64,000 nucleotides of DNA, from contig OY821772.1 in NCBI GenBank assembly GCA_963682175.1, positions 55,202,925 through 55,266,924 of the forward strand. Reading direction: 5' to 3'. Shown here piece after piece: positions 9,671 through 56,651 of this stretch. Source of the stretch: Triglochin maritima. Taxonomy: Eukaryota > Streptophyta > Magnoliopsida > Alismatales > Juncaginaceae. The notes below the pieces were generated by a model. The model did no database searches, was not told the origin of the DNA, and saw only the letters and a program-made list of their open reading frames with translations. The first letter of the stretch is position 1, and each line of letters starts with the position of its first letter. The translations under genes were made by a program, and so were the position numbers.

Positions 9671-9848
9671 TCTTCTGGTATTACGATAGCTTTGTTGTTA
9701 TTTAATATATATCAGTAATCTAGATGGGGTTGAATATATTATCTCTTAATTTTGTTGTTTTAATGAATTGTTATTTACCTATCTTACAGTGTCTGAACGG
9801 ATTGACGTGGACAACTTCCCATATGTTGATAGACTGTGAGGAATCATT

Positions 9849-25430: not shown

Positions 25431-28019
25431 AGCGAAATATTTTGTATGTAACTATTTAGTGAGACTTGAATGAATGTAAGAGTTGATTAATTGTAAGACT
25501 TGAATTAATGTAATGTATTTTGTTATGACTTGAATGAATGTACGCCTTTCATTTTTAAGAGTTGATTAATTATAAGACTTGAATTAATGTAATGTATTTT
25601 TTAGGACTGCAATTTTTTATGAGTTTGATGATTTGCAACACTTTCATATTTTTTTAATAACTCACATGGTGTAGTGGATAAATTAGACTCCAATTTTTAT
25701 GACTCCATTTTTTCCTAACTGTAATTAATATTACGTTGAGTTTAATATTTGCAACAATTCAATGTTTTCTAATATTTAACGTGTTATGTACAGATGGAGT
25801 TTGGTGGTTCCAGTACTGGTTCGGTTAGAAGTAGCTACGCTTCACAGGGTCCGGTAGACAGATTAGTGTTGATTTTGCAGGTCAACCACAAGTCTGACTT
25901 GTTCAAAGATTTTGTAAGCATTTTACGTCTTCAAGTTAAATATTTGCACATGGGTTTCAATATTCTGACATTTCTCTAAATTTATGCAGAAGGATGTTGA
26001 TGGTGTAAAATGCGTTGAGCATGGATCGAAGCTCAACGAATGACATATCACTGATGAGAGGATGTTGTTTCTGCTAGATATGACAGGGTTTGACACAGTC
26101 ACTCGGTTGGGCCGAGTCCAGTTGGATCATACCTTGCTGGGGGCGATGGTCGAGCGTTGGAGTCCGGAGACTCACTCATTTCACCTGCGACATGGTGAGA
26201 TCACGTGCACCTTGCGTGACATCTCTATGATTACCGGCTTGCGCGTAGATGGTTTGCCGGTGTGTAAGTCTCAGGAGTACGTTTGGTCAGAGGTTTGCAT
26301 GGATTTATTGGGTCTGGTCCCCGATGACTTGTGTCGTAAGGGGTCCGTAACTCTGGGTTGGTTGCAAGCTCAGTTTCAACAGTTGTCTTTTGATGCTGAC
26401 GAGGAGACAATTACACGACACATCAGAGCATTTATTCTGTTCCAGCTGGGATGCAATATTTTGGCAGATAAGAGTGACATGATGGTTCACTTGAAGTACC
26501 TGTCTTTGCTCGGAGATTTGGCCATCGCATCGGAGTACAGTTGGGGTAGTGCGATTCTGGCCCACTTATATCACATGTTAGACGAAGCTTCACTGATTCC
26601 GACCAAACATCTGTGTGGTTTTCTTACGTTCCTGCAGTTGTGGTGCTGGGAACATCTACACATTGGGAGACCTTTGAAGAGCAGACCATTACTATACCCG
26701 GAAGACGAGAGGGCACCATTAGGTGCCCGTTGGAGACGACCAAGAACATTCAAGGGTAGTGCGAAGACGACGACACTTGATTTTTATCAGAATGAGCTGG
26801 ACGTGCAGGAATTCGATCAAGTGATCTGGGACCTTTATGAAAGGAATGTGTTCTAAAAGTTTTACTTTTATATGTCAATTATTATGAATTGGATGTGCAA
26901 ACATTTTGTTCATTGATTATGATATTCGTCTTTTGGAAGTGTTAAGGAAGATGCGTTTGGTCCTTAACCGTAGAGCTCTAAAAGATAATGGTTTACATAA
27001 ATCAAAAATTATTCACAATCATGGTAATTAACATGGAACATTAATCACCGAGATAAGATTGTCGTGTTGGTCATCGATTGTTGTAGCTCTACAAATAATT
27101 GACGACACGAGTATATAAAAGAGGAAAAGATTACTTTTATATATTGAATAGACATAACAAGTAAAACATCATTGTAATTGTGTTTCGTGTCATTAATGCT
27201 TTACTGTGTCTTGGATCCTAAGATATGAGACTTATATCTTTTCACTCAAGAAATGCTTAATTTGATTATTGTCAAAAGTTATCAATGAGTATAGTGCTAA
27301 AGACAATAGTTGGTTGAACATGACTTGTGCTGGAAAAGATAGCTAGTCAAACGATTATCGTTCCCCCTCTTAATTGAGTGATGATATTAGTGAGCCATTT
27401 GATAAAGCAAAATTATAATGTGCACAATGTAACTTGAGTTAAGTTACATAGTTATAATTAGCTTAAAGAGATCAAGAAATGAATAAAATACAAAGGTGAC
27501 ACATTTCTACTTTGTATATATTCTTAATATCATGAGACAAGGGACAGACACAAGTGGTGCACTTAGATCACTAAATGGATCGTGTTTTAGTTCGAGTGGA
27601 ACAAAAACATCTATGTTAATTGGGTAACTATAATATGTAGCTAGAAACTGCTTATAGTTTGAGATATTAATTGTTTAATATCGCTGCCAATGTAGCTTAG
27701 ATCCTTCTATATGTCACACCACAAAACTAGGAACACAATAAGCTTGATTTTGAGTTCATATGATGTGTCGGGTTTCATGTGAAAAATGGACACATGTGGT
27801 AAACGAATAAAATCAACATGTCATGAGAATTGACATAATTCGAATCATAATAAATTCATATGATGTGTGTATATTATGGGGTGTAATAATTTAATATTAC
27901 ATAAGATAATATATTACATAAGATATGAATTTGCTAAAACCCCAAAAGATTAAATTTTGTTGGAAATAAATCCAAAATTTGACAAAGTCAAAATCAGGGT
28001 CAAACACGGTGAACCGTTC

Positions 28020-28385
28020 AGGGTTTGGTCGACCGGGGTATCTTCGGATCGGTTAACCGAATGGGGAACGGGTAAACACAATTGGTTGACCAAAATTGTC
28101 TAGAGTCCCTGGACAATCGGTTCGGTTCACCGAGTGTGAACGGTCAACCGAGAAAAAATATTTTCGGTAGACCGAATGTGACACGGTTATCCGATGACTA
28201 TGCTCTAGGAGAAATTTTGGTGAGTCAATGGTAGACCGAAGAGAAGACGTGGTTCGTCCGAATTTTTCCAGAGAATTTTTCTCATGAGGAATCGGTCGAC
28301 CATCGAGCTCACGGTTCACCGAACACATGTTATAACCGAACAGTTCGGTTGACCGAATAATGCGCGGTCGACCGAACAATGCGAT
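28020..28385. repeat. CGGTCGACCGAA-like motif cluster in LTR
   Basis: About a dozen degenerate copies of CGGT(T/C)(G/A)ACCGAA, for instance CGGTTAACCGAA, CGGTTGACCGAA and CGGTCGACCGAA, spaced irregularly at about 20-40 bp, some 170-530 bp upstream of the LTR TATA box. The core is palindromic. Confidence 0.75.
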
Positions 28386-28553
28386 TTCTACCTGAATTAT
28401 TAAGAGATTAATTAGATCATGGATGGATTAATTCCAGAATTAATTAAAACGTTTTTGAGGATGCTTATGTGGAAATTTGAGATTAATTTTAGGAGAGAAT
28501 AAGCAAGGGATCATGACTAAAGAATAATTATTGATAATGATGTTTTGGGAGCC

Positions 28554-28560
28554 TATAAAA
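28554..28560 (+). promoter_or_regulatory. LTR TATA box
   Basis: TATAAAA in the 3' third of the 26838-29010 LTR, after the motif cluster and before a pyrimidine-rich leader. Position and sequence fit the U3/R border of a plant LTR. Confidence 0.6.
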
Positions 28561-30054
28561 GGACCCCTCCTCCTACTTGTTTAGGTTAATGCAAAAATTC
28601 TTTCTCTCATTAATTTTTCCTATAATCACCACGAAAATCTCTTATTAATTTTGAGTGTAGGAGATAGAAATCTGAGGAGCTCAAAGAGGGGTTATTAGCT
28701 AGATTCTAAGTCTCATTAGAGATTGATTAGCTAGCTCCTTTCTCTTTAATCTTGTTTAGAGTTTGGTGAACACTCGGAGGCAAATCGGTGGACGATTCTA
28801 CGGGCAACGCGACTCCGGATCTTCGAAAGGTTTTAGAGAACCTTTGGGTATGATTCTCTCTTTGTGATTTATTTTAATATTGTAGGATTGCATGATATTA
28901 GAATAAACACAAAGTAATGTACATAAAATTGTTGAAAGTATGAAATCGATCTTGTATGTTGTATTAATTTTTTTAAAATATATACATATATGGGGACACG
29001 AAATCCTACACCTTATGCACATTTGGATCTTAGCCAGTTACCACCACTATGTACGGAATGTTCAGAGATCTGGACAAGCTGTACTTGACTTATAAATTTT
29101 GGTGATGTGGTTATGCATTGTCCAGACCGAGTGATGAGACAATTCGGTCTACAACAGCACATTCCAGAGCCGATGGAAAGACATGTAGTGAAATCGGCTC
29201 AGGGGAGGTCAGATGTTAATTGGTTGGCGGAAAATCACAAATTCATTCAGCATTGGTCGCACAGAAGATATCATCTTCAGTTTGAGCGACCGCTCCTAGG
29301 TGTCACTCCTGAAGAGAGCACACGACTGTATATGGAATGGTACTGGAGCATCACCGTACGTTGGATAGTTCATCACACCTTGGCTCCGACTAATACCTTA
29401 TACAGACCTCGAGCGGGTAGAGAGCGAGAGATGGTAAGATTTAAACATTTATTTAAACAATTACCACGTTTTAAATATTGTGTTTAGTGTTTGATGAACT
29501 GTTAATTATCTGTAGGTGCACGGAGTTTATGAGTTCCACGAAGAACTCCATCAAATTCACGAGGCGATCAAAGATCACAAGCCATGCTCTTCGATGGTTG
29601 AAAAATTGAAGGAAAAAATGAAGGCTTGGCTCATGTCTTTTGGTGCTGAAGAACCCACATTACATTTGAGTCAGGATCGCGTCATTGAAGAAGATCCACA
29701 CACTCAAGAAGACACTGACGGTCTGACTCAGGATACTGAGAATGCGACACGAGGAGGGGACGCAACAGGGGGAGAGGACGTGCTCAAGCACGTCCTAAAA
29801 GGAAGAAAAGATTGAGATGTCACTTAGGATAGATATTTAGTTGTGTTAAACTTATTTGATTGTTATTACCTACTTTTGGTTTTATGTTAAAATGTTAAAC
29901 TCGTTATTGTGGTTGTTTGTGTTTTGTGGTTGAATTGTGTTTTAGTAATTGAAATGAGTGTCTTTGTTGTGAAACAGGAAATGAAATTGTCTTTGTTGTG
30001 TTTGTTGTCAAAGAGGAGAAAAAAATTGTCGAGTTCTTAAATTAATGAACTCTT

Positions 30055-30265
30055 TCAAGAGAACTCGGCACTGAGGATGTCGAGTTCTCTTGATGTGAAC
30101 TCGGCATCACAAGTGCCGAGTTCACACCAATAGAACTTGGCATCCCCAGTGCCGAGTTCTTTTTGAATCACTGTTCTCCTGACCGTCCAACCGTCTCATG
30201 CACGATCTGAGTGTCAAGAGAACAATTCAAATTGAACTCGACATCCCCAGTGTTGAGTTCTATTT
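30055..30265. repeat. M2 right subterminal GAACTCGGCA palindromes (inner)
   Basis: Four copies of the M2 palindrome (at about 30061, 30099, 30134 and 30237), each with arms close to GAACTCGGCA and TGCCGAGTTC. Two more copies at about 31703 and 31737 lie beyond the solo LTR, so the cluster was split by that insertion. Confidence 0.75.
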
Positions 30266-30335
30266 GAATCACTGTTCTCTTGGCAACTCACGTCGAGTGA
30301 AATATGACAGTGTTGAGCAATAAAAAATCAAATAG

Positions 30336-31696
30336 TGTTGGCTTTTTGGCTAATGATTGCTTATCCGTTTTGATGATTAATCAACATATAACTTAAACAC
30401 ATGTAATTCATTCATATCACTCTTGCACAATACACATATATCGTTTTTTACTAACATTTCAGGTGACAAGTTTAACGAGGAATGAAGTTGAAGAGTAGAT
30501 AGGTTTACATTATTGTCATTAGGATTTAAATGTAACTTGAGCACTTAAATCTTGATGCATTGCATATCATGACTCTTTAGGATTCCATAGAAGTAAAACT
30601 AGACCTTCAAATTCCATACAAAACTTCTTTAGAAATCAATCAAACCATATCCTGGAATTCTGCACTCAACCGGTCGACCGGTCGACCATCTGGTTCAACC
30701 GTTTCATTAGAGTAACTTGAGGTGTTTTGGTCGACCGATCAACTGTTCATACGTGCTGGAAGACACGTGCCTTAGTGCAAACCGGTCGACCGAAAGTCCT
30801 TTTCAGTTCGACCGGTTGATTTCTATTTTTGTCTTCTTTTGTGACCGTTATACTTGTCGTATTATACAACGGTCGTATACACATACTTTCACTATACCCC
30901 CAAATACATAGCTTAACCGGTCGAACAAATCTTATTCATCGGTCGACCGTTTCATTGTTTCGTTCGACCAGTACACTTAAGTTCCATCCCAGTCAGTTCG
31001 ACCGTTCCTAGTTTGTCTGACCGTTTGACTACTATTCACGTAACCGGTCGACCGTTTCATTCTTACCGGTCGACCGAACTATGACAGAATTGCTTCTTGA
31101 ATCTCTGATTTGTGTATCTTGCACAAAACCCAATCAAATCTTTCTCAAACGGCTAGAAAACTTAAGAGGCTTATATATAGAGCTTAGATCATCTTTACAA
31201 GGTCACCAATCCATTCTCTAAGCTCTCATTGTGCTAAAAACTTCCAAGTGCTCTTACTCTCTTTATTGCTCTCAACCACTCTCTTGATCAATCATTCAAT
31301 TGCATTCATCATCAATTCAAGTGCTCAAGAGTAGGTTACACAAAGTCTACTACAAAGGAGTTGTACAAGCTTCCGGAGTGAAGCTCTTCTCGGGTTGTGA
31401 GAAGGAGGTCCAAGCTTGACGAGGGTGTTCGCAAGCTTGAATTGTAAATGCTCGATCTTTGCCCGGAAAGAAGATCAAATTAGTGAAGATCGCGAAGTTG
31501 CTCAAGGAAGAGCAATTCGTAAGAGAGGACTAGGATCCGGTGGTTGGATCCAAACCTCTATACATCCGGTGTTTGGTTTGCCTTTTCATCTCACTATTTT
31601 CATTGGTTATCTTGTTATTGCTCAAATAGTTGGTAGTGAGAAATTAGTCTATAAACCCCCCCTTAAGACTAATATTTAGGGCAATTAGATCCTACA
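30336..31696 (+). mobile_element. Solo LTR (1.36 kb) in M2 right TIR
   Basis: Begins TGTTGGCTTTTTGG, ends GATCCTACA, and is flanked by a perfect 5-bp TSD AATAG (30331-30335 and 31697-31701). No internal retrotransposon genes. It carries a TATATATA box at 31172 and a cluster of CGGTCGACCG-like motifs at 30668-31080. Related LTRs start at 61919 and 63616. It separates the inner and outer halves of the right inverted repeat of M2, so it is younger than M2. Confidence 0.92.
30668..31080. repeat. CGGTCGACCG-like motif cluster in LTR
   Basis: About a dozen exact or near copies of the palindrome ACCGGTCGACCG, half-sites such as GTTCGACCG, and variants. The cluster is directly upstream of the LTR TATA box at 31172. 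Confidence 0.8.
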
Positions 31697-42730: not shown

Positions 42731-44500
42731 GGGAAATGTTTTATGAACGCAGCGCGTCACGGACGCGTTTTACGTGGATATCCATGTCAGCCCTTACGTG
42801 GTCAAAGCATGAATATTTTTTTGTTTTTTCTTCCTGATGTCCACTCAAATCACATTAAATGCGTTTCAACTCAGCACGTTCTCTCTCTCCACCCAAATAC
42901 AAATATGATGACACTCTTTTTTTCTTCTTCATTCTTTCTCTCCAGAATAAATCACCATTTCTAGCAAGATATTATGTCGAAGAAGCGTCTGATGCCGACT
43001 CCCAGGATTCTTCACAACGTAAGCAGCGTGAATGGGACGGTGCGAAGACTTCCCGATGTTCTTGTCAGCGTTAGCATCGTGAATGTTCTTCCCTATTTTT
43101 TTCCTAAACGTAATTCTTGTGGGGTAAAATATACAGTGGGAGGTTTGTTGAGTTTGTGCGGGGGTGGCAGGGGGCGGCAGCCCCTGCGGGGGGCGTTTTT
43201 TTGTTTTGACATCATATTATTGCATTCCATATATTGATTCGTTTATTCCGACAATAATGAAGCCATATATTATTCCGGACTGCAAATACACTTATTCCGG
43301 ACTGCAAATACACTTATTCCGATTCCGGACAGCAAATACACTTATTCCGGACAGCAAATCCACTTATTCCGGGCAAACTTTATGTTCTGTTTCTGGACAC
43401 ACTTTATTCTTAAACCGGACAACAAATACACTTATTCCGGACAAACTTTTTGTTCCGTTTCTGGACACACTTTCTTCTTATTCTGGACAACTACACTTAT
43501 TCCGGACTGCAAATACACTTATTCCGGACATCAAATACACTTATTCCGGACAACAAATCAACTTATTCCGGACAAACTTTATGTTCCGTTTCTGGACACA
43601 CTTTATTCTTAAACCGGACAACAAATACACTTATTCCGGACAGCAAATACACTTATTCCGGACAAACTTTCTGTTCCGTTTCTGGACACACTTTCTTCTT
43701 ATTCTGGACAACTACACTTATTCCGGACTGCAAATACACTTATTCCGGACAACAAATACACTTATTCCGGACAACAAATCAACTTATTCCGGGCAAACTT
43801 TATGTTCCGTTTCTGGACACACTTTATTCTTAAATCGGACAACAAATACACTTATTCCGGACAACAAATACACTTATTCCGGACAGCAAATACACTTATT
43901 CCGGACAAACTTTCTGTTTCGTTTCTGGACACACTTTCTTCTTATTTTGGAGAACTACACTTATTTCGTACTGCAAATACACTTATTCCGGACATCAAAT
44001 ACACTTATTCCGGACAACAAATCAACTTATTCCGGACAAACTTTATGTTCCGTTTCTGGACACACTTTATTCTTAAACCGGACAACAAATACACTTAGTC
44101 CGGACAACAAATACACTTATTCCGGACAGCAATATACACTTATTCCGGACATACACATAACGTAAACAGGACAAACACATAATGTAAACTGCACACACAC
44201 ATAAAGTAAGCTAGACAAATTAAGTTGATCCAACGTAAAACTTAAAAACAAATATTTTATTATGATAAGTGTGGGCTCTGCACGAATAATGAGACTGCAC
44301 GATGTCCTAGGGTCTGCACACTGTCTTATCTGTGTATTGGGAAATGAATCGTTCAACTTAAAGAACCGGCGTTTTTTAAAAAGACCAAAACGCGCGAAGA
44401 GAAATTTCGCTGACTGGACGCTGACTCAAAGAAAAATATCTGAGCTGTACAGATCTACGTAAGGCGCGTCCGTGACGCGCGCGTCCGTCTATCACGGCTT
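42731..44500. mobile_element. M3: non-autonomous relative of M4
   Basis: The left end GGGAAATGTTTTATGAACGC, followed by CGCGTCACGGACGC, matches the left end of M4 at 46568. The right end, with GACTGGACGCTGACT and GCGCGTCCGTGACGCGCGCG, matches the right end of M4 in the same inverted sense. No transposase is present. A short reading frame from the ATG at 42974 ends at a GTAAGC donor, like a stray first exon. About half of the element is a TCCGGACA array (43265-44155). No matching TSD could be found, so one end may be rearranged; the right border is placed by analogy with M4. Confidence 0.75.
43265..44155. repeat. TTCCGGACA array of M3 with higher-order units
   Basis: A dense tandem array of CACTTATTCCGGACA units about 20 bp apart, all with CCGGACA on the plus strand. 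A longer pattern is superimposed: a segment with CCGTTTCTGGACACACTTT recurs at about 43381, 43570, 43801 and 44042, marking higher-order units of about 190-240 bp. It is open in several frames only because stops are rare in the unit. Confidence 0.9.
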
Positions 44501-46558
44501 TTTTACTTATGGTACCGTCTGGATTGGGATTCCTGATAAATATTTTGGAAAATATATTAGATTAGCCAAACACCGGAATTGAGAAATCGATTATCAACCT
44601 AAAATTAAATTTTGGTCCGTAAAACATGCATTCACGTGTTCTCTCTTCCTGGAATAGGAAAATAAATTGATTCTAGATTAGTGTTCATGGATTTTGGAAG
44701 AAAATACATTTTTACCTTCACAACATTCCACCAAACAATGCCTTTTGACTATTTCTTCTATTCTTCCTACATTTTTTCAAATTTCTTGCTGCTTCTTCCA
44801 CACAACCCATCCAACACTATAACCTTTTTTCTATTTTTCTGGTTTATTTTCGGATATATTAGGTGGCAAAGATGTGACAAGTTTCTTGTTCCTTTTATAA
44901 AATGGATCCACATGCAAGGTTCTTTTGTCCAATTTCCTCCGCGTACTCCATTTTCTCATTTCTTTTGGCTTTGTTTTTTGTCTAGCCACTTCACATGCAA
45001 CACCATTTTTTTTGTCTTTTTTGTTTTTGTTTCTATGTATGCAACAGGAAATTGTGGTGAAATTGGTTGGTTTGTTTTTCTTGTTTGATATGTTGAGGAA
45101 AATAGTAGTGAAATAGATTAGATTTTTTTTGTAGAGATTGGAATTTGACACGAAGAATTTGGTCCACGAAACGACGGGGAGAAGATGAAGCAGAGCATGG
45201 AGTATTCTAGTAAATTAGTCTATTTTAGAATCTTTCCTATCCAAACACCCCATTTGTTGAAATCAATTCTAACTAGGAATTTGATTCTTGAAAATCAAAT
45301 TTTACCTCAAAATCGATTTCCTAGAATTGTCTCCAAATGGATCCTTAGTTTAACTAATAAGTTTTTTTGCTATTGTTCCGCTACATCGAGAATGTTGCAA
45401 AAACTAACCAAGTCTGGAAGCTTCTAATCCAATCGAAGGTCAGCTTCTTAAAACCTCTCATTTCTGAACATCATATGATTATTCCCATAGGAGATGAATT
45501 TCTTAGATAATGCAAGGAAAAATTAGATTATTGTCACCGATAAATGTTAGGGGCAGAACTATATAAAATCAGCTCTGGTCTAGCAAAAGGCTTAAGTTCT
45601 TATTTGGTAAAAAAAAGATACAACAGGGGAGGAGGGGTGGTGGCGCCGAAGGTTAGTGGACGCCACATATGTTAACGACAAAAGACGAACTGTTTGTTTT
45701 GGAATAATGTATAGGACCACGCGTTGAATTAAAAAAATTGGTTTTGACCACAACATCAAGAACATTATTAATCCCAACTCAAAATCCCCTATCCAATTTA
45801 ATTTCTTTTTTTGCTACATCAGCAAAAAAAACACTATACATCACACCACCCAATCCAACTTATTTTTCACTCGTTAACCTCAATCTCACTTTCAACTCTC
45901 TCTCTCATCCACATCATTTTTATTACCTCATTTTCTATTCTATCACAAAAATACACAAACTACTAAATAAATTATTTATACAGCAACTTAATCTAATTAA
46001 ATTATGCTAATTGCCAAATAATTTCGAAAAATTAGATTTAGTAATTCTCTACCGATTTTTTGGGATTACTAATCCGTTTTTTGGTAAATTCATGTGTTCT
46101 ACTTTGCTAGATAATTTTTTCTTTAATTATATACATTTACAATTATCTTACTATTTTTCTTTAATTACTTACATTTATTTTTACTAATTTTTATTAATTA
46201 TTTACATTTATTTTACTAATTTTCATTAATTATTTTCGTTTATTTTAATTTTCAGAAATTAATTCTAATTATATAAAACATATACATATCAATTAAATAT
46301 TATTTAACAAATAAAAAAACTAATTTTTAATCTTTATTTAAAAAAACAAAAAAAATTAGACCAACCCATGTCGCAACCCGACCCGACCTCAAAAGACCAT
46401 CCGTCAAGGATGGTCTAAGGAGAAACCAAATCAAAACGAAATTAAACTGAAATTAAGGTGATTCAGACGTCTGCATGACCCTTTAGTGAAGTTGCGAGTT
46501 GCGACCATGTGACACTCGGCTAAATGGCACCGGATTATGTTGTATAATGTTGTAACAT
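44501..46558. other. Spacer between M3 and M4
   Basis: AT-rich DNA with pyrimidine-rich tracts and no recognised gene; the ORFs at 44681-45088 and 45738-46010 are low-complexity and unconvincing. A hairpin (AGACCATCC / GGATGGTCT) sits at 46394-46416. Confidence 0.4.
46394..46416. repeat. Hairpin of MITE-like terminal words
   Basis: AGACCATCC, a 5-base loop and GGATGGTCT form a perfect 9-bp stem. The stem word equals the terminal word of the 11680-11930 element, so this may be an end-to-end junction of MITE ends. Confidence 0.5.
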
Positions 46559-46845
46559 ATAGAGAACGGGAAATGTTTGTTGAACGCTTCGCGTCACGGA
46601 CGCTGCTAATCCAGTCAGCAGAATGGCTGATGTGGGCAAGCCAGTCAGCAGACGCGGCTGAGTTCGCTCTCTCCCCAGAAACAATTTCTTTGTTTAGTTT
46701 ATTCCTCGTTTCGTACAAATTTCTCCTCCCTCGCCATCCCTCATTAATGCGTCTCAAATCACTCCATTCTTTCATCATGTTGGCGCTCCTACACTCAACA
46801 TTCGTCCTCCTATTTCTTCCCTTCTCTTTATTAAATTCATTTTTT

Positions 46846-47200
46846 TCCGGACACACACATCAGTCATTTTTTTTAGTTTCTGGACAAGCACGTAACTTAT
46901 TCCGGACAGTTGGAATACTTATTCCGGACAGACGGAACACTTATTCCGGACAGACGAACTACTTACTCCTGATTTTTTGTTGTTGTTTTATTTTCCCGAT
47001 GCGTCCACCATCGCATTTAATGCTTTTCAAATCAGCACGTCCTCCGTCTTCTTTCTTATTCTTTGGCGCGTCAGTTGGAATACTTATTCCGGACACAGTT
47101 ACTATTTATTCCGGACAGTTGGAATACTTATTCCGGACAGTTGGAATACTTATTCCGGACAGACGGAACACTTATTCCGGACAGACGAACTACTTACTCC
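46846..47200. repeat. TCCGGACA array A, upstream of M4 transposase
   Basis: About nine ATTCCGGACA words, all CCGGACA on the plus strand, in the leader region of the transposase. A segment of roughly 150 bp with GGAACACTTATTCCGGACA, CGATGCGTCCACCATCGC and GGCGCGTCA is duplicated about 232 bp apart (46928 and 47160), in the same orientation. Confidence 0.85.
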
Positions 47201-47393
47201 TGATTTTTTGTTGCTGTTGTTTTATTTTCCCGATGCGTCCACCATCGCATTTAATGCTTTTCAAATCAGCACGTCCTCCGTCTGCTTTCTTATTCTTTGG
47301 CGCGTCACGGAGATACAAATATGAGTGTCTAGGTTATTCCGATCCTACGAACCATTCCTTCTTCTCTCCTTCCTCCATTTTTGTTGTACTGTA

Positions 47394-50113
47394 ATGGCAC
47401 TCGTAAATGTGTCCTCACAGCCGGCTCATGCCTCCAACGTCCCTCAAGTGATGATGAATTTTCCTTCCTTCGAAGAAGCCAAAGCATTTTACGTTTCATA
47501 CGCCGATTCCTGTGGTTTTGGTGTGAAGATAAGGCAATCTCATTACGGTCATGGTGTTGTAATACGGGCCACTCTTACTTGCTCAAAGGAAGGTAATGCT
47601 CCCGGAAACCAAGGTGAAGGTAGACCGAAACATAGGTTATCCGGTAGGGTCGAATGCACTGCTCGGATTAGGGTCTCCGGTAATCCATCCAGAGGCTACG
47701 TAATTAACTACGTAGATCTCAAACATAATCACGCCATGCTGTCGGAAGACCAGATGCGCTTCCTCCGACAAAAACGATCCGTCCCGGAGTCCGCCAGAGC
47801 ACGCATTTCGTGCAATGATGCTGCCGGTATATCTGCCGCCAAGACCATGCAATCTTTTGTGGTCGAAGCTGGAGGTCACGATAAATTGTCTTTCAACGAG
47901 CGGGACCTAAGGTTATTTATTCTCCATTTAACCTGGTTGAAGTTACGCATTTAGCTTTGTCATAAAAATTATGTTTCGCAGGAATGTTGTGAACGAGGTT
48001 AGAAACCTCAAAATGGGACCAGGAGATGCGCAAGCTATCCAAGATTATTTCATCAGGATGCAGAAGAATGATTCCCGCTTCTTTTACGTAATGGATATGG
48101 ACGACGAAGGCAGACTACGAAATGTGTTCTGGGCCGACAATCGTTCTCGAGCTGCTTACTCTTACTTTGGAGATGCAATATGTTTCGACACAACATACAT
48201 AACAAACAAGTATGACATGCCTTTTGCCCCATTTGTGGGGGTAAATCACCACTACCAGTCCGTCCTACTCGGTTGCGCACTCCTCTCTTCCGAGACGACA
48301 CAAAATTACATTTGGTTGTTCCAAACATGGTTGACATGCATGAACGGTACGTGTTTTATTTTGTCCGGCTTTGTCCATTTTACGTTGTGTGCCTGTCCGG
48401 TTACTCTTTACGTCTGTCCGGTTTACGTCTTTTGCTCGTCCGGTTTATCCTTTACGTCTGTCCGGTTTACGTCTTTTGCTCGTCCGGTTTATCCTTTACG
48501 TCTGTCCGGTTTACGTATTTTGCTCGTCCGGTTTATCCTTTACGTCTGTCCGGTTTACGTCTTTTGCTCGTCCGGTTTATCCTTTACGTCTGTCCGGTTT
48601 ACGTATTTTGCTCGTCCGGTTTATCCCTTACGTCTGTCCGGTTTATGTTTTTTGCGCGTCCGGTTTATCCCTTACGTCTGTCCGGTTTACGTATTTTGCT
48701 CGTCCGGTTTATCCCTTACGTCTGTCCGGTTTACGTTTTTTGCGCGTCCGTTTTATCCCTTACGTATTTTGCTCGTCCGGTTTACCCTTGACGTCTGTCC
48801 GGTTTACGTTATTTCTGTCCGGATTAACATATGTTTTTATCTTGATCGCGTTGTGTGCATATACAAGCCCCCCGGCGATCATAACTGACCAATGTGGCGC
48901 CATAGCTTCGGCTGTGAGGACTGTGTTCCCTGAAGCGCGGCACAGATTTTGTATATGGCACATAATGAATAAGGCCCCTGTGAAGCTGCCCAAGAAGTAC
49001 CGGGAGCATACGTTGTTTGACCTCAACAACTGTGTATTCGATTCCAAGACTCCGGCAGAATTCGAGCGGAATTGGCAGGGATTTCTAGATGATTTCGAGT
49101 TGCACGACAATAATTGGCTCCGATCCATTTATGCAATTCGAGAGCACTGGGTACCTGCATTTTCGCGGGATTGTTTTTCCGCCGGAATGACATCAACCCA
49201 GAGAAGTGAGGGTATGAACGCCTTCTTCGATAAGTACCTCACATCAAGGACGACACTTAAGCAGTTCGTTCAACAATACGAACTCGCACTACGCCACAAG
49301 TATGAGAAGGAAGCTCAGTCTGATTTCGATTGTCAGCATAAGGCTCCGCAATTGATTTCGAAATATCCATTCGAGAGGCAATTGAGCGAGTTGTATACGG
49401 TGGGTGTCTTCAATAAGGTGCAGTTAGAAATTGGGAAGATGATGTACTGCGACATCAAGGATGAGTTCAACGAGGACGACACATTGCACTTCAACGTGAC
49501 CGAACATGTATTGACACATATCCTCCCATTGTCGAAACGGTTCACAGTGCAAATTAGAGATGAGAAGTGGGTATGCGATTGCAGGATGTTTTATCACGTC
49601 GGTATCCTATGTTGTCACGTTTATGTTGTTATTGCCCGAATACGTCCAAACGCGTTGCTCCCCGAGTCTTACATCGTCCACCGATGGAGGAAGGATATCC
49701 GAAGGAGCTATGGAGTCAAGTTTCCTCTTCAAAGCGGCATAACGGGGAACGATGCGCTTCGTCGCCACGACGACATAATGGGTCGTGCGCTTTGGATCGC
49801 CGAGGCCGCTTTCGACTCAAACGACAGATATCTTCAGGCGGTAGAGGCACTTGAGTTGCTTAAGGAATGTATGCAACGACCTGATCCTGTGTTCGCTGGT
49901 ACATCCGTTCTCAATCCGGATAAGACAATACGGAAAGGCAGACCGCCGAGCAAACGACGGATTTCTTTGTCTGAGAAAATAATTAAAAGTAACGTTAAAA
50001 AAATCAACAGGAAGAAGGCTCTACCCCCGTTACACCCTGCAGCACCCAAACCGGGGGATCACGATTTCGATGACTGGGACATGAATTTGCATTACGAGGG
50101 AGTTCCTCCTTGA
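47394..50113 (+). CDS. M4 FAR1-type MULE transposase, 3 exons, intact
   Basis: Predicted cut-and-paste transposase (710 aa), exons 47394-47911, 47982-48350 and 48868-50113, with phases that join without stops. Seen: FAR1/FHY3-type zinc-binding DNA-binding domain (about residues 25-120: FEEAKAFYVSYADSCGFGVK, TCSKEG, VECTARIRV, KHNHAML). The MULE DDE core follows with first Asp in CFDTTYITNKYDMPFAPFVG, second Asp in IITDQCGAI, a HRFCIWHIM block and the Glu candidate in TQRSEGMNAFF. A SWIM finger CDCRMFYHVGILCCH is near residue 540, and the C-terminus is basic. Intron 2 is entirely a TGTCCGG array; its donor GTGTTT is chosen because it gives NGTPPAIITDQ in frame. The ATG at 47394 is in good context (ATGG) and precedes the conserved domain. 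Host FAR1/FHY3 factors derive from such transposases, but the TIRs, TSD and partner gene mark this as the element's own. Confidence 0.9.
48360..48835. repeat. TGTCCGG array B, inside M4 transposase intron 2
   Basis: Roughly nine tandem copies of a 44-bp unit, each with two sites (CTGTCCGGTTTACG and CTCGTCCGGTTTATCC), all reading GTCCGG on the sense strand. The array fills nearly the whole 517-bp intron 48351-48867. Confidence 0.9.
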
Positions 50114-50133
50114 TTATTGTATTTGTCCTTGGT

Positions 50134-50245
50134 TGGAATTATTCCTATGTAATTTTGTTGAAAGTCATTGTAATTTTGTTGAAAGTCATTGTATGTAATT
50201 TTGTTGAAAGTCATTGTATGTAATTTTGTTGAAAGTCATTGTATT
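50134..50245 (+). repeat. Four short tandem repeats after the transposase
   Basis: The word TAATTTTGTTGAAAGTCATT is repeated four times with a 22- to 26-bp period, just downstream of the transposase stop, in its probable 3' UTR. Confidence 0.85.
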
Positions 50246-50334
50246 ATTGCATAAGATTCAACCCTTTCTTTGCTTGATCGTTTGTGAATTAATTTCTCAT
50301 GGCGACAAATATATTAAGTAATTTTGGTTTGTTG

Positions 50335-51360
50335 TATGTCTGTCCTGATTACGTTATATGTCTGTCCGGTTTATGTTTTAATTAAGTCCGGATTAAGTGA
50401 CCAGTATGTCCGGAATACGTAATTAGGCCGTCCGGATTACATTGTTTGTCTGTCCGGATTACGTTATATATCCGTCCGGAATAAGTTTTATTTATGTCCG
50501 GATTACGTTATATGTCTGTCCGGTTTATGTTTTATTTATGTCCGGATTAAGTGACCAGTATGTCCGGAAGACGTACTTAGGCTGTACGAATTACATTGTT
50601 TGTCTGTCCGGATTACGTTAATATCTGTCCGGAATAAGTTGTATTTATGTCCGGATTAAGTTACCAGTATGTCCGGATTACGTTATATGTCCGTCCGGAT
50701 TACGTAACATCAATGTCCGGATTAAGTGACCAGTATGTCCGGAATACGTAATTAGGCAGTCCGGATTACATTGTTGTCTGTCCGGATTACGTTATATGTC
50801 CGTCCGGAATAAGTTTTATTTATGTCCGGATTAAGTTACCAGTATGTCCTGTTTATGTTTTATTTATGTCCTGATTAAGTTACCAGTATGTCCGGAATAC
50901 GTAATTAGGCTGTCCGGATTACATTGTTTGTCTGTCCGGATTACGTTAACAGTATGTCCGGAATACGTAATTAGGCAGTCCGGATTACATTGTTGTCTGT
51001 CCGGATTACGTTATATGTCCGTCCGGAATAAGTTTTATTTATGTCCGGATTAAGTTACCAGTATGTCCTGTTTATGTTTTATTTATGTCCTGATTAAGTT
51101 ACCAGTATGTCCGGAATACGTAATTAGGCTGTCCGGATTACATTGTTTGTCTGTCCGGATTACGTTAACAGTATGTCCGGAATACGTAATTAGGCAGTCC
51201 GGATTACATTGTTGTCTGTCCGGATTACGTTATATGTCCGTCCGGAATAAGTTTTATTTATGTCCGGAATAAGTTTTATTTATGTCCGGATTACATTGTT
51301 TGTCTGTCCGGATTACGTTATATGTCCGTCCGGATTACGTATCATGTATGTCCGGAAAAA
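50335..51360. repeat. TGTCCGGA array C, between the convergent M4 genes
   Basis: About 1 kb of TGTCCGGATTACG, TGTCCGGAATACG and TGTCCGGATTAAG units, all reading TGTCCGG on the plus strand. A 219-bp higher-order unit is repeated almost identically (50844-51062 and 51063-51281), pointing to recent unequal exchange or slippage. It lies between the 3' ends of the two genes. Confidence 0.9.
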
Positions 51361-51493
51361 AGAAAATCATTTATATATAAAAACCCAACACCAAATGTCC
51401 TTGTATTGATAAATCATTCAAATAGTCTATGTAATTTTAACATGTATACATGTATAACTTTGGGGAAAAAAAATTGAAACATTTTCAGGGCGT

Positions 51494-54400
51494 TTATTGT
51501 TGATCGCACATCCCAGAGTCTTCGAGTAAGAAATTGGCCAAATCGCCTCTAAAACGGTGAAGAACCTTGCTCTGCTTCGGCTTCGTCGGATCAGCATTCT
51601 CCATCAAACGCTTGATCCAGTACAAAACGTATGGCCCGCAGTCGTTACTCCCCGCTAGCTGTCGTTGGCTACCCTTCCTGTCAACTCTCAGTGGCCAGTC
51701 GACCGCCAAAAACCCTCGCCAGAATCCCGCTATCTTAGACGCGGTGCATTCATGAGTTCCGACTAAACGGTTAGGATTTTCACCTCTTTTAAGCGTGCGG
51801 GAGATGCTGTTGTACTGAATGAACTCTGATCGAGGTCCGTGGGCAACGAACAGAGTCCAGTGGCCGGACAAACAGCATGGCTGTGCGATGACGACTTCCT
51901 CCACATTAAGTCCTTCAATTTTTGGGAGTAAATAATCTTTCTTTATATCTTCTCCCTGTCCCTGCACAATCATTTCCGATTCGAAGGATGATAAGCAGAC
52001 CACCTTTTGTTGCCCTCCTCTTCTGACGAGTACCTCAATTAGGCCGTCAAGAGTTTCGTTGGTGATTTCTGTGCCTCGCGAAATTATTTCCTTGAGATCA
52101 CCCCTGCTGATAATGCTGAGAACCCCCCTCCAGATAATATCTTTTGCTTCTCGCTCGGGAGCCGTTGCATTCAATAAACGATGTACCTCATCATTGGTCA
52201 GCGTTCTCAAGGCGGTCTCATCCACATCTGGCCTCGTGGACGAAACATGGGCGGCCAGTGAATCTTTCGCTGTTTCTTCACTGGCTTCTTCGGGCCCTTT
52301 TGTTTTTGTGGTGGCTTCTTCGGCCTCCTTTATTTCTTCTTGTTTTTCTGCGGCAATCTTCTGTGCCTCATCTTGGCCAGATTTGCTTTGCGCTTCGTCT
52401 ATGTGTTCTGTGCGCAAGCGTGGTTTAATGGTCCGCATTTTTTGAGGGTGCAAAAGCGGAAGCGCAACCCCAGCCTTCCTCTTTCTTTCCTCCTGTCTCC
52501 TCATAACTTCCTCCTTCCTTTCTTCCTCCTTCCTCTTCTCTCCCTCTTCCTCCCTCTGCTTTTTTCTCTCTTCCTCCTTCCTCTTCTCTCCCTCTTCCTC
52601 CTTCCTCTTCTTCCTGTCTTCCTCCTCCCTCTTCTTCCTCTCTTCCTCCCTCCGCCTTTTTCTCTCTTCCTCCTTCCTCTTATTCTTCTCATCCTCCTCC
52701 TCCCTCCTCTTTTTTCTCTCTTCCTCCTTCCTCTTCCTCCTCTCTTCCTCCTCCCTCTTATTCCTCTCATCCTCCTCCCTCCTCTTCTTCTCATCCTCCT
52801 CCTCCCTCTTCTTCCTCTCTTCCTCCTCCCTCTTATGCTTCTCATCCTCCTCCCTCTTCTTCTTCTCATCCTCCTCCCTCTTCTTCTTCTCATCCTCCTC
52901 CCTCTTATTCCTCTCATTCTCCTCCCTCTTCTTCTTCTCTTCCTCCCTCTTCTCCCTCTCTTCCTCGTTCCTCTTTTTTCTCTCTTCCTCCTCCCTCCTC
53001 ATCCTCCTCTTCTTCTCATCCTCCTCCCTCATCTTCCTCGCATCCTCCTCCCTCTTATTCCTCTCATCCTCCTCCCTTCTCTTCTTCTCATCCTCCTCCC
53101 TCTTATTCCTCTCATCCTCCTCCCTCATCTTCTTCTCATCATCCTCCCTCTTCTTCTTCTCTTGCTCCTCCCTCTTCTTCCTTTCTTCCTCCTCTCTCTT
53201 CTCCCTCTCTTTCTCCTCTCTCTTCTCCCTCTCTTCCTCCTCTCTCTTCTCCCTCTCCTCCGCCTCCCTCTTACTTCTCTCTTCCTCCTCCCTCTTTTCC
53301 CTCTCCTCCGCCTCCCTCTTATTTCTCTCTTCCTCCTCCCTCTCTTCCCTCTCCTCCGCCTCCCTCTTATTTCTCTCTTCCTCCTCCCTCTTTTCCCTCT
53401 CTTCCTCCTCCTCACGGACTCTCAGCTCACGACACTCTTCTTGAGAGATCCGGAGTTCTTCCTCCAGGTTGTTAATTTTAACGGTCGCCTCCCTAAGTGC
53501 TGCTTCGGCTCGCAGCCATTTCGACTTCACCTCACTAAGTTCCAACTCTTGTAGCAGTGGGTCACATGGAATGCTGCATTCACTGAGTTGTATCCTTGGT
53601 AGAGTGGATGTTGAAGGTGTTTCCTTCGAGGCGACCGTTGCTTCTGCAGGAGTTGAAGGTGTTTCCTTCGCTGCGGGAGTTGCTGTTGCAGGAGGAAATT
53701 GATCCTCTGACAACAGTGAATGCTCCCGTGCACTGAGTTTTGGGGTGCCCTTCAACTCAAATTGGCCCGAGTATATCCGGGACAAGTTGATGCCTCGATC
53801 TTCCCATTTTCTAAGGATTTGGCGTCTGCTAAACATTTCGGTCCAACACTTGAACCGTGGAAATGCTGACCGGGGATCCCCCAATTTGAACTTCTCGCAA
53901 AGCCACACCTGAAAACAGGAATGAGTTAAAAAACAGAAACATAACTTCCCCAGAAAGACCAAACACTAATTCCGGACAGACACAACTCTTATTCCGGACA
54001 GACACAACTCTTATTCCGGACAGACGCAGACGTATTCCGGACATACAAATTACTTATTCCGGACAGACACAAGACGTATTCCGGACAGACAAGACAATCA
54101 TTCCGGACACATACAGGACTATTCCGGACTGGCAACACACTTATTCCGGACAGGCAACACACTTATTCCGGACAGAGACAACACTCATTCCGGACAACCT
54201 CAAGACACTTATTCCGGACAGAGACAACACTATTGAGGACAGACACAAAACTTATCCCGGACAGACACAAGACTTATTCCGGACAGAGACAACACTATTC
54301 AGGACAGACACAAGACTTATCCCGGACAGACACAAGACGTATTCCGGACAGACAAGACAATCATTCCGGACACATACAGGACTATTCCGGACAGGCAACA

Positions 54401-55503
54401 CACTTATTCCGGACATAAACCAACACTACTCCGGACTGACACAACACTCATTCCGGACAACCACAAGAGACTTATTCCGGACAACCTCAAGACACTTATT
54501 CCCGACAGAGACAACACTATTCCGGACAGGCAAGACAATCATTCCGGACACATACAGGACTATTCCGGACAGGCAAGACAATCATTCCGGACACATACAG
54601 GACTATTCCGGACAGGCAAGACAATCATTCCGGACACATACAGGACTATTCCGGACAGGCAACACACTTATTCCGGACATAAACCAACACTACTCCGGAC
54701 TGACACAACACTCATTCCGGACCAAGATGCTTACTTGTAATACGGCAACGCAACCAGACACGTAGCCCTGCTTCATAGAGAAGTTCGCTGACGATCTCCT
54801 CCTCGAGAGGTCCCGTTGGGCTTCCTCCAGGCCTTCAACCAAGAAAGTGTGAACCGCATTTGCCCACACATATCTCTTGAGGCGCTTGAGGTTCTTAAGG
54901 TGTTTCGTGTACCACGCTTTAGTTCGCAGTGATCCATCGAAGAACAAAAAATGATTGAAAATCATAGAAATAAGGAGTCGGACGTGCTCCTCCTCCTCGC
55001 CCATCTTGCTCGTGGCGGTAAGATGACCCAGTAGCTGGGTGTTGTCGAGGTTAACCCCGTCACGTTTCTCTACGTACATGGCATCCATATCCACTCTCTG
55101 CCCATGTACTCTTAGTCCAAGTAGAAGGGCGACGTCTTCTACCGTAAATGGGACCACCCCAGTGGCTATTCTCAGACCGACTTCATTGGCGTCGAAGTGT
55201 TCGACGAACCAACCCAGTATCTCGTTGTCAGTTGTGACGTGAGGAAAGCTGAGGAAGTGACCGAAAGGCGTCCGTTGGAAGACATTTTTCTCCTCCTCCT
55301 TCATCCGGTCGAACTGCTTGTGAAGGGCCGCGAAACCGCACTTGGTTTCGCGGAAGTAGTACGTGCTTCCCTTAAACCACACAAAAAAATTGTTAGAGGC
55401 CAATAATGAACCTTAAAATGAACCAGAAAGAACATGGTTGACAAAACACCTGCGCAGCTACAATTTCAGGAGCAATGGAGGTTTCAGGTAGAGAAGGATC
55501 CAT
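51494..55503 (-). CDS. M4 PMD/DUF1985-like + coiled coil + Ulp1 protease protein
   Basis: Minus-strand exons 55503-55450, 55370-54735 and 53908-51494 give a 1034-aa frame without stops. Residues 19-260 resemble the PMD/DUF1985-type region of MULE-borne proteins (RTPFGHFLSF, ATGVVPFTVEDVALLLGLRV). About residues 395-700 are almost pure Glu/Arg/Lys (EEERKKREE-type repeats), a long charged coiled coil or single helix. The C-terminus is an Ulp1 (C48) cysteine protease fold: GHWTLFV with the catalytic His (about 913), QLAGSNDCGPYVLYW with Gln and Cys (about 987). Where the family usually has YDS the sequence is QYNSI, so the catalytic Asp appears to be Asn. Ulp1 proteases remove SUMO. Similar proteins ride in plant Ulp1-bearing MULEs. 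Array D fills intron 2. No tail-to-tail overlap with the transposase: 1.38 kb separates the stops. A role in de-silencing or SUMO control is inference. Confidence 0.85.
53965..54725. repeat. ATTCCGGACA array D, inside intron 2 of the Ulp1 gene
   Basis: About forty CCGGACA words (plus strand), i.e. TGTCCGG on the sense strand of the gene. Near 54527-54660 a 43-bp unit (two sites) is repeated several times. The array fills nearly all of the 826-bp intron 53909-54734. Confidence 0.9.
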
Positions 55504-55838
55504 TTTCGCCTTGTCTTGGTTTTCGGAACTGGAATGGAAAGGTTTTGGAGCAATGAAGGTTTTGGATGAGCGTATGGAAAGGAACTCCGGGTGAAATGGG
55601 GAAAGTTACTCGAATGCTGTACCGCAGCTAATGATGTACGTGAAGTCGAACCGTCTAATCGTGATTTAGGGAAATGAACCGTCGCACGGAAATGAACCGT
55701 CGCACCCAACAATTCGTAATTTACATTTCCCCACGCAGAAGTTTTGGCTGACTGGACGCTGAACTGGCAGCTGACGTGTTATTCCACGTAGGACGCGTCA
55801 CGGACGCTCGCGTCCGTATATAACTACTCATAGAGAAC

Positions 55839-56651
55839 AGGGCACTCGTTTCCCACTGTAACAAGTAAAAGACAACCAGAAAAACAGTGTCTCTGCTGTT
55901 CGGTTAGAAAATCATATTTAAGTGCAAAACATTCAATCAATTTGTTTGAGAGATCCTTAGTATTGTGATAACCAAAAGTAAATAAACGAATCTTGACTGT
56001 TTCATTCACATATTCAGGATATTTGGAATATAAAATGCAATGAAATAGAGTACATAAAATTTCCAAAAAAATATCTCCAGAGTCAAGAGGAACATAACAT
56101 CACTCTAAGCTAACCAGAACTCCCCAGTTCCGCTCAAATTATTTTCAAAACCAATTTAAAGTGAGTGCGAGACAGAATGTGGTTCGTGTCATTCAAACGC
56201 AGTGGCTCATCAATTTCATGGAAAACTGACATAAAATAATGCTCATCCCATCAGAAAAACATGAGGAAGGGAAACAAACCAAAGTTTGGATATGATTTAA
56301 AACCTCCACTTCTCCGTGCTGCATGCAAGCGTCCAAACTAATCCTACCCAAATCCAGGAAAAGCATACATATTTGTATATACACACACACCAAGCAACCA
56401 CATTACCGATTTAAAAACACAGAACCCAAAGTGTTACTTCCAACACCAGCAAAAACCCTCTAAAACTAAAACCCCTTCTAGTTCTACGGTTCTACCCCTC
56501 TCCTCCACAAACAAAGAAGAAAGCAGAAAGACAAACGTTTATTTTTTTCGAGGCAAACACCACAAAAAAGAAAAGCCCAACGCAGATAAGAGTCGAGGGT
56601 GGTGGTAGAAATTAGAGAGAGGTGAGGAGGTTGGGATTTGGGGCAAGGTTG
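55839..56651. other. Receptor kinase upstream region
   Basis: About 0.8 kb between the M4 TSD and the kinase ATG, presumably its promoter and 5' UTR. It shows an ACACAC tract near 56383 and no gene. No single promoter element could be assigned with confidence. Confidence 0.45.

What the first reader, a model, noticed from the sequence alone, without database searches (positions are those of the whole stretch)
43265..54725. A private TGTCCGG motif array system in M3 and M4, reminiscent of VANDAL anti-silencing targets
Seen: well over one hundred copies by eye (not a computed count) of TGTCCGG, mostly TGTCCGGA/TTCCGGACA, in five arrays and only inside M3 and M4. Known: Arabidopsis VANDAL MULEs encode VANC proteins, some with DUF1985-like regions, that bind short motifs accumulated in their own non-coding DNA and remove methylation there. 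Inference: the M4 PMD/DUF1985-like protein or its FAR1-type transposase may read TGTCCGG, giving an independently evolved self-recognition system.
Basis: partly seen in the sequence, partly recalled or inferred. Interest (0 to 1): 0.87.

Follow-up and report, generated by a model that had tools for sequence, protein, structure and literature searches.

The report
Jumping gene's repeated private DNA address
A plant jumping gene and a small relative carry five blocks of the same short DNA word, mostly 22 letters apart and kept out of the protein-coding parts, which looks like a landing pad for one of the element's own proteins and may help it escape silencing by the plant.

Summary
101 exact TGTCCGG sites lie in five arrays; 3 lie in the other 60,435 bp. 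Each array is one-directional, with 22 bp the commonest spacing.

M4 is one 9,262-bp element (46,568-55,829) flanked by an exact 9-bp duplication. It has two convergent genes: a FAR1-MULE-SWIM transposase, and a PMD / charged repeat / Ulp1-like protein. Array C lies in a transposase intron and array E in an accessory-gene intron; splicing them out improves the MULE and PMD matches. Array B lies upstream of the transposase and array D between the gene ends. Array A is in M3, a short relative in which no M4 coding match was found.

The layout matches published VANC target arrays of Arabidopsis VANDALs. But the transposase is FAR1-type, the word differs, and the accessory protein matches PMD, not DUF1985.

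Best reading (0.5): a VANC-like self-recognition and anti-silencing system on another MULE lineage. That the arrays are protein-binding sites is well supported by inference; which protein binds, and any loss of methylation, is untested. The host genome could not be searched (11 requests unanswered).

The parts
46568..55829 (.). Element M4, 9,262 bp, imperfect terminal inverted repeats sharing GCGTCACGGACGC
   Evidence: identical 9-mers ATAGAGAAC at 46,559-46,567 and 55,830-55,838; end alignment
42731..44505 (.). Element M3, short relative of M4 without recognised genes; right end approximate, no target-site duplication seen
   Evidence: left end 88.9% over 36 bp to M4 left end, right end 78.6% over 42 bp to M4 right end, 65-68-bp stretch like the M4 5' region, no match to the M4 exon parts queried (the charged-repeat part 52,441-53,908 was not queried)
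43265..44165 (-). Array A in M3, 22 exact TGTCCGG
46840..47205 (-). Array B, 9 exact TGTCCGG, upstream of the transposase ATG, in a partly duplicated module
48355..48850 (+). Array C, 12 exact TGTCCGG, inside transposase intron 48,351-48,867
   Evidence: MULE domain becomes one full-length match when the intron is removed
50330..51360 (+). Array D, 30 exact TGTCCGG, between the 3' ends of the two convergent genes
53960..54730 (-). Array E, 28 exact TGTCCGG, inside accessory-gene intron 53,909-54,734
   Evidence: PMD score rises from 28.9 to 49.9 bits when spliced
47394..50113 (+). Transposase gene (exons 47,394-47,911, 47,982-48,350, 48,868-50,113), 710 aa, FAR1-MULE-SWIM
   Evidence: MULE 1.9e-32, FAR1 6.2e-15, SWIM 4.9e-5
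51494..55503 (-). Accessory gene (exons 55,503-55,450 tentative, 55,370-54,735, 53,908-51,494), 1,034 aa: PMD, charged coiled-coil-like repeat, Ulp1-like C-terminus
   Evidence: PMD 3.4e-13 above cut-off; C48 9.4e-4, 19.5 bits, below cut-off 20.7; open frame

Best explanation
M4 is an intact-looking FAR1-type Mutator-like element whose non-coding DNA holds dense, one-directional TGTCCGG sites at a 22-bp pitch (about two helical turns). The sites act as a landing pad for a protein encoded by the element, most likely the PMD / coiled-coil / Ulp1-like accessory protein. Bound side by side it marks the element's own 5' region, introns and intergenic DNA, and short relatives such as M3, and counters DNA methylation there, as VANC proteins do for VANDAL elements. 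Shown: arrays, privacy within the window, orientation, pitch, non-coding and intron location, gene structure, and that the core word is what all five arrays share. Inferred, with falling certainty: that a protein binds the word, that it is the accessory protein, that binding removes silencing.
For: Enrichment and one orientation. 79 of 80 M4 sites in 4,037 bp non-coding, 1 in 5,225 bp coding. TGTCCGG ranks first of all 7-mers by lowest density over the five arrays (23.3 exact per kb; best spacer 7-mer 6.5 per kb even with one mismatch); the longest word common to all five is the 9-mer CTGTCCGGA, while spacers differ between arrays. Splicing tests place arrays C and E in introns. Two metagenome relatives of the transposase (P0002, P0003) are unspliced and read back into the same intron; P0002 has five more residues there than the window, which elsewhere in the window intron are spelled with TGTCCGG. 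Published VANC sites share this layout: co-oriented, dense, tandem, in introns, intergenic and terminal DNA, variable in number (PMC5735166 Results). Ulp1-bearing VANDALs are reported to do the same (review PMC13317346 section 11).
Against: No binding or methylation data. No DUF1985 hit. The accessory protein has one detectable relative only, so its fold and role rest on one above-cut-off Pfam match, and both structure models failed (mean pLDDT 37.6 and 40.4). C48 is below its cut-off. No array lies in the 1.15 kb between array E and the right end, i.e. in the presumed accessory-gene promoter. Arrays A, B and E share flanking letters, so they are not five independent origins. Two other PMD-bearing MULE regions here lack arrays, so PMD alone does not imply them.
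Confidence: 0.5

Rival explanations
1. The FAR1-type transposase itself reads the arrays, as an enhancer of transposition or of its own promoter, and any effect on silencing is indirect.
For: It carries FAR1 and SWIM domains, and other transposon proteins that bind DNA (TnpA, MURA) lower methylation (PMC10398659 Discussion).
Against: A transposase must recognise the element ends, and no exact TGTCCGG lies within 279 bp of the left or 1,150 bp of the right end of M4; the ends share another word, GCGTCACGGACGC. Most sites are deep inside introns and between genes.
Confidence: 0.18
2. The arrays are tandem repeats without function that spread in tolerant non-coding DNA of one element lineage.
For: Tandem repeats expand readily; arrays A, B and E share flanking letters; one module in array B is plainly duplicated (97.8% over 182 bp).
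Against: Five places in two elements hold the same core with different spacers, always one direction per array; of 37 positions chosen by spacing alone, 29 keep 5 or 6 of 7 core bases, although 8 do not, 7 of them in array A. Coding tandem repeats of M4 (charged repeat, 52,521-53,411) have another word.
Confidence: 0.15
3. A host factor reads the arrays: a host regulator exploited by the element, or small-RNA-directed methylation for which the repeats are a target.
For: Tandem repeats can be siRNA sources and RdDM targets, and RdDM targets overlap VANC1/VANC6 targets (PMC10398659 Discussion). Each core holds a CCGG methylation site.
Against: Sites harmful to the element should not be amplified in four places of it; the accessory gene is open over its whole length. 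CpG is not depleted in the arrays (0.92-2.05 observed/expected against 0.77-0.78 in four bulk stretches), though M4 exons are also near 1.
Confidence: 0.13

Closest known systems
VANDAL21 / VANDAL6 with VANC21 / VANC6 (Arabidopsis; PMC5735166, PMC10398659)
   Same: Short co-oriented words in dense tandem arrays in introns, intergenic and upstream non-coding DNA; MULE with a separate accessory gene; 9-bp duplication listed for VANDAL in PMC6446971 Table 1. VANC6's word AGTTGTCC shares TGTCC with TGTCCGG (array A holds GTTGTCC 12 times, AGTTGTCC twice).
   Different: FAR1-type transposase; other word (no YAGTATTAY in the arrays); PMD rather than DUF1985; Ulp1-like tail; two recognised genes against three (VANA, VANB, VANC); no functional data.
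KI-MULEs / KIU genes (Ulp1-bearing VANDALs; PMC13317346 section 11 and passages, PMC2528002 passages)
   Same: Ulp1-like domain in a gene antisense to the transposase; reported motif-directed hypomethylation of relatives.
   Different: mudrA-type transposase there; the Ulp1 part here is below the Pfam cut-off and no named KIU relative was found.
Jittery-like MULEs with Ulp1 genes (grapevine, melon; PMC2528002 passages)
   Same: FAR1/Jittery-like transposase followed by a Ulp1 coding region: the gene pairing itself is already known.
   Different: The passages seen mention no motif arrays and no anti-silencing; the word 'tandem' does not occur in that text.
Spm/En TnpA and MuDR MURA (PMC10398659 Discussion)
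   Same: Element-encoded DNA-binding protein lowers methylation of its own element.
   Different: Other superfamily (Spm), or acts on terminal repeats (MURA); the TnpA 12-mer as I recall it is absent from the window (exact match only).

Membership tests
VANDAL with VANC anti-silencing | Dense co-oriented short words in tandem arrays in non-coding parts of the element | tested here: met
VANDAL with VANC anti-silencing | DUF1985 domain in the accessory protein | tested here: not met
   no DUF1985 hit at E up to 1 or up to 10; PMD instead
VANDAL with VANC anti-silencing | VANDAL-group transposase (SWIM and CCHC, no FAR1 listed, PMC6446971 Table 1) | tested here: not met
   FAR1 6.2e-15 in the transposase; by domain content only, no tree with VANDAL sequences was built
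VANDAL with VANC anti-silencing | Accessory protein binds the word and removes methylation | not testable with these tools
   needs binding and bisulfite data
VANDAL with VANC anti-silencing | Word enriched in the family and rare elsewhere in the genome | tested here: inconclusive
   true in this window; host genome search unanswered (11 of 11)
Ulp1-bearing MULE | Peptidase C48 domain in the accessory gene | tested here: inconclusive
   9.4e-4, 19.5 bits against cut-off 20.7; no PDB sequence hit; fold model unusable
FAR1/Jittery-type MULE | N-terminal FAR1, MULE core and C-terminal SWIM in the transposase | tested here: met
   PMC6446971 Table 1 group 36; the Hop group also has FAR1 in half its members
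FAR1/Jittery-type MULE | Phylogenetic placement in the Jittery clade | not tested
   no reference Jittery or VANDAL transposases were at hand; the table gives an 8-bp or unstated duplication for plant members, M4 has 9 bp
MULE | 8-11 bp target-site duplication with terminal inverted repeats | tested here: met
   9-bp ATAGAGAAC on both sides, imperfect terminal repeats

The most novel reading that the evidence does not exclude
A FAR1/Jittery-lineage MULE has evolved, separately from Arabidopsis VANDALs, its own sequence-specific anti-silencing pair: a PMD-Ulp1 protein and a private TGTCCGG address, whose CCGG core could make the address itself a methylation-sensitive switch, with M3-like non-coding copies as free riders.
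Probability: 0.3. Interest if true: 0.82.

Novelty: new variant of a known kind. Interest (0 to 1): 0.62.

Why it matters
In the papers I could read, sequence-specific anti-silencing with a private repeated word is described for VANDAL-type elements. The same architecture on a FAR1-type transposase, with a PMD-type protein and another word, would suggest that self-addressed escape from methylation arises repeatedly, and would give PMD proteins, listed in many plant MULE groups (PMC6446971 Table 1), a testable role as address readers. A new protein-word pair would also be a candidate tool for locus-specific demethylation.

Tried and rejected
Rejected: generic satellite. In 1-kb scans (low-complexity words left out) the top one-strand 7-mer count outside M3/M4 is 8 (TCGACCG near 30-31 kb), against up to 34 in M4. 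Among 129 viral-contig loci, all pre-selected for holding the word or a longer form of it, the largest one-strand TGTCCGG count in 1 kb is 9; array D has 30 in 1,031 bp.

Rejected: the DUF1985 label and VANDAL membership.

Led nowhere: CpG content as a sign of low methylation (youth and low methylation cannot be separated). In 150 units picked by core similarity the CG step shows C to T once and G to A 10 times, 9 of those in one repeated sub-unit of array A. FHY3/FAR1 site CACGCGC (PMC7181604, passages): absent from the window; GACGCGC occurs at the M3 ends, in the M4 5' region and in array C, not at the M4 ends, so it does not settle what the transposase reads. Structure models too poor for fold search, so none was run. 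PDB sequence searches: two chance-level hits at E 0.6, none. Viral scans: 75 stretches with one match each and 54 stretches, taken as chance. Paper search for the word: one unrelated paper (listing only). The 2022 EMBO J study of eudicot antisilencing is not held, so whether it covers FAR1-type MULEs is unknown to me.
Full report
WHAT IS THERE. The window is plant DNA, judged from its FAR1/MULE and PMD domains and an LRR-kinase-like ORF from 56,616 (my reading). Exact TGTCCGG or its complement occurs 104 times: 101 in five arrays, 3 single in the other 60,435 bp. A Markov-1 model expects 4.0 in the window; shuffles of 42,731-55,829 give mean 1.38, maximum 6, against 102. In each array every exact copy has one orientation, and 22 bp is the commonest spacing of GTCCGG in all five. 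The perfect palindrome TGTCCGGACA does not occur in the arrays, so the site reads as directional.

ELEMENTS. M4 spans 46,568-55,829 (9,262 bp), bracketed by the identical 9-mer ATAGAGAAC. Its ends are imperfect inverted repeats sharing GCGTCACGGACGC. M3 (about 42,731-44,505) shares both ends and a 65-68-bp stretch of the M4 5' region and has no match to the M4 exon parts queried; the charged-repeat part was not queried. I saw no target-site duplication for M3. About 2.05 kb of other DNA lies between the two.

GENES AND INTRONS. The + strand gene splices to an uninterrupted 710-aa transposase. Its second intron, 48,351-48,867, holds array C. The MULE domain is split by it (4.8e-17 and 8.5e-10) and becomes one full-length match, 1.9e-32, when it is removed. 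The in-frame donor (AC|GTGTTT) is less canonical than a neighbouring out-of-frame GTACGTG. The - strand gene has a GTAAGC donor and a TTTTCAG acceptor around array E; removing that intron raises the PMD score from 28.9 bits, below the 34.9 cut-off, to 49.9 bits. Its 18-residue first exon is tentative. The C-terminal part is weakly Ulp1-like (C48 9.4e-4, 19.5 bits, cut-off 20.7). Array B lies upstream of the transposase ATG in a partly duplicated module. Array D lies between the gene 3' ends. With coding parts as defined, 79 of 80 M4 sites lie in 4,037 bp of non-coding DNA and 1 in 5,225 bp of coding DNA.

WHAT IS CONSERVED. Ranking all 7-mers by their lowest density over the five arrays puts TGTCCGG first (23.3 exact per kb); the best spacer 7-mer reaches 6.5 per kb even with one mismatch allowed. 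The longest word in all five is CTGTCCGGA. In 150 units picked by core similarity, agreement between arrays is 0.71-1.00 per core position and 0.23-0.79 elsewhere; that choice favours the core. A choice by spacing alone gave 37 positions between exact sites: 27 match 6 of 7 core bases, 2 match 5, and 8 match 4 or fewer, 7 of these in array A and 1 in array E. Arrays A, B and E also share flanking letters, so some arrays have a common origin.

RELATIVES. Of 1,548 transposase hits at E up to 1e-10 (120 listed), two are close: P0002 (96% over 60% of the query) and P0003 (90% over 59%), from unnamed metagenome sources. Both are unspliced ORFs that run back into the same intron, 54 and 27 residues, and spell the same words; P0002 has five more residues there than the window, and those letters (CPV) are spelled TGTCCGGTT elsewhere in the window intron. 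This is read from protein letters, not DNA. The other listed hits are 35-46% identical. The accessory protein has one relative, P0001 (93% over 336 residues), the single hit of both searches (among 3,526 and 1,243 candidates).

INTERNAL CONTROLS. Two other MULE-type regions, near 8-11 kb and 22-27 kb, have MULE or SWIM matches and PMD ORFs but no comparably dense word. So arrays are not a feature of every PMD-bearing MULE here. The PMD ORF at 26,044 also gives a sub-threshold DUF1985 match (18.8 bits, cut-off 35.1) and is 25% identical to the M4 PMD over 158 aligned positions, a weak link between PMD and the DUF1985 of VANC.

MECHANISM. VANC21 sites are short, co-oriented, dense and tandem, in introns, intergenic and terminal non-coding DNA; VANC6 uses AGTTGTCC or AGTTGTAC (PMC5735166, Results read). 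RdDM acts on the same non-coding regions (PMC10398659, Introduction and Discussion read). M4 matches that anatomy closely, so I favour a VANC-like role for the accessory protein (0.5). That a protein binds the word, that it is the accessory protein, and that binding removes methylation are inferences of falling certainty. The transposase is the main rival reader; against it, no exact site lies within 279 bp of the left or 1,150 bp of the right end of M4. The same fact cuts the other way too: the presumed accessory-gene promoter, at the right end, has no array.

MEMBERSHIP. M4 is filed as a MULE with a FAR1-type transposase, not as a VANDAL: DUF1985 was tested and not met, and FAR1 is not listed for the VANDAL group (PMC6446971, section 6 with Table 1 read). 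Jittery-like MULEs with Ulp1 regions are known in grapevine and melon (PMC2528002, passages), and Ulp1-bearing VANDALs are reported to have motif-directed anti-silencing (PMC13317346, section 11). In the searches I found no TGTCCGG array and no motif array in a FAR1-type MULE; only listings were seen for most of those papers, three later searches failed, and the key 2022 paper is not held.

LIMITS. The host genome could not be searched (11 of 11 requests unanswered). The species is not identified. No usable structure of either accessory domain was obtained.

Noticed in passing
26044-26856 (+): A PMD ORF (2.2e-58) that also gives a sub-threshold DUF1985 match over the same stretch (1.7e-3): a hint that PMD and DUF1985 are related domains.
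   Followed up: partly
8360-10868: Another MULE remnant: MULE-domain ORF on + (1.3e-24) with an antisense PMD ORF (9.8e-17); no TGTCCGG array.
   Followed up: partly
51797-52000 (-) region of the accessory gene: Where Ulp1 proteases usually have the catalytic Asp (recalled), both the window and P0001 read Asn (QYNSI), next to intact GHW and NDCG; the protease may be altered or inactive.
   Followed up: no
52521-53411: The accessory gene has a long charged coding repeat (24/48/72-bp periods) whose length differs from P0001; VANC variable regions are also reported to be tandem peptide repeats (PMC5735166).
   Followed up: no
28027-31075: Palindromic CGGTCGACCG occurs 6 times and GGTCGACC 11 times in the window, mostly at 28-31 kb, the next most repeated word outside M3/M4.
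   Followed up: no
L095:6315-6462: A viral contig carries a tandem repeat of about 20-22 bp with inverted TGTCCGGAAACCGGACA sites, an apparent look-alike of unknown meaning.
   Followed up: partly
55829-56650: M4 sits about 0.8 kb upstream of the start of an LRR-kinase-like gene (ORF from 56,616), so its chromatin state could affect that gene.
   Followed up: no
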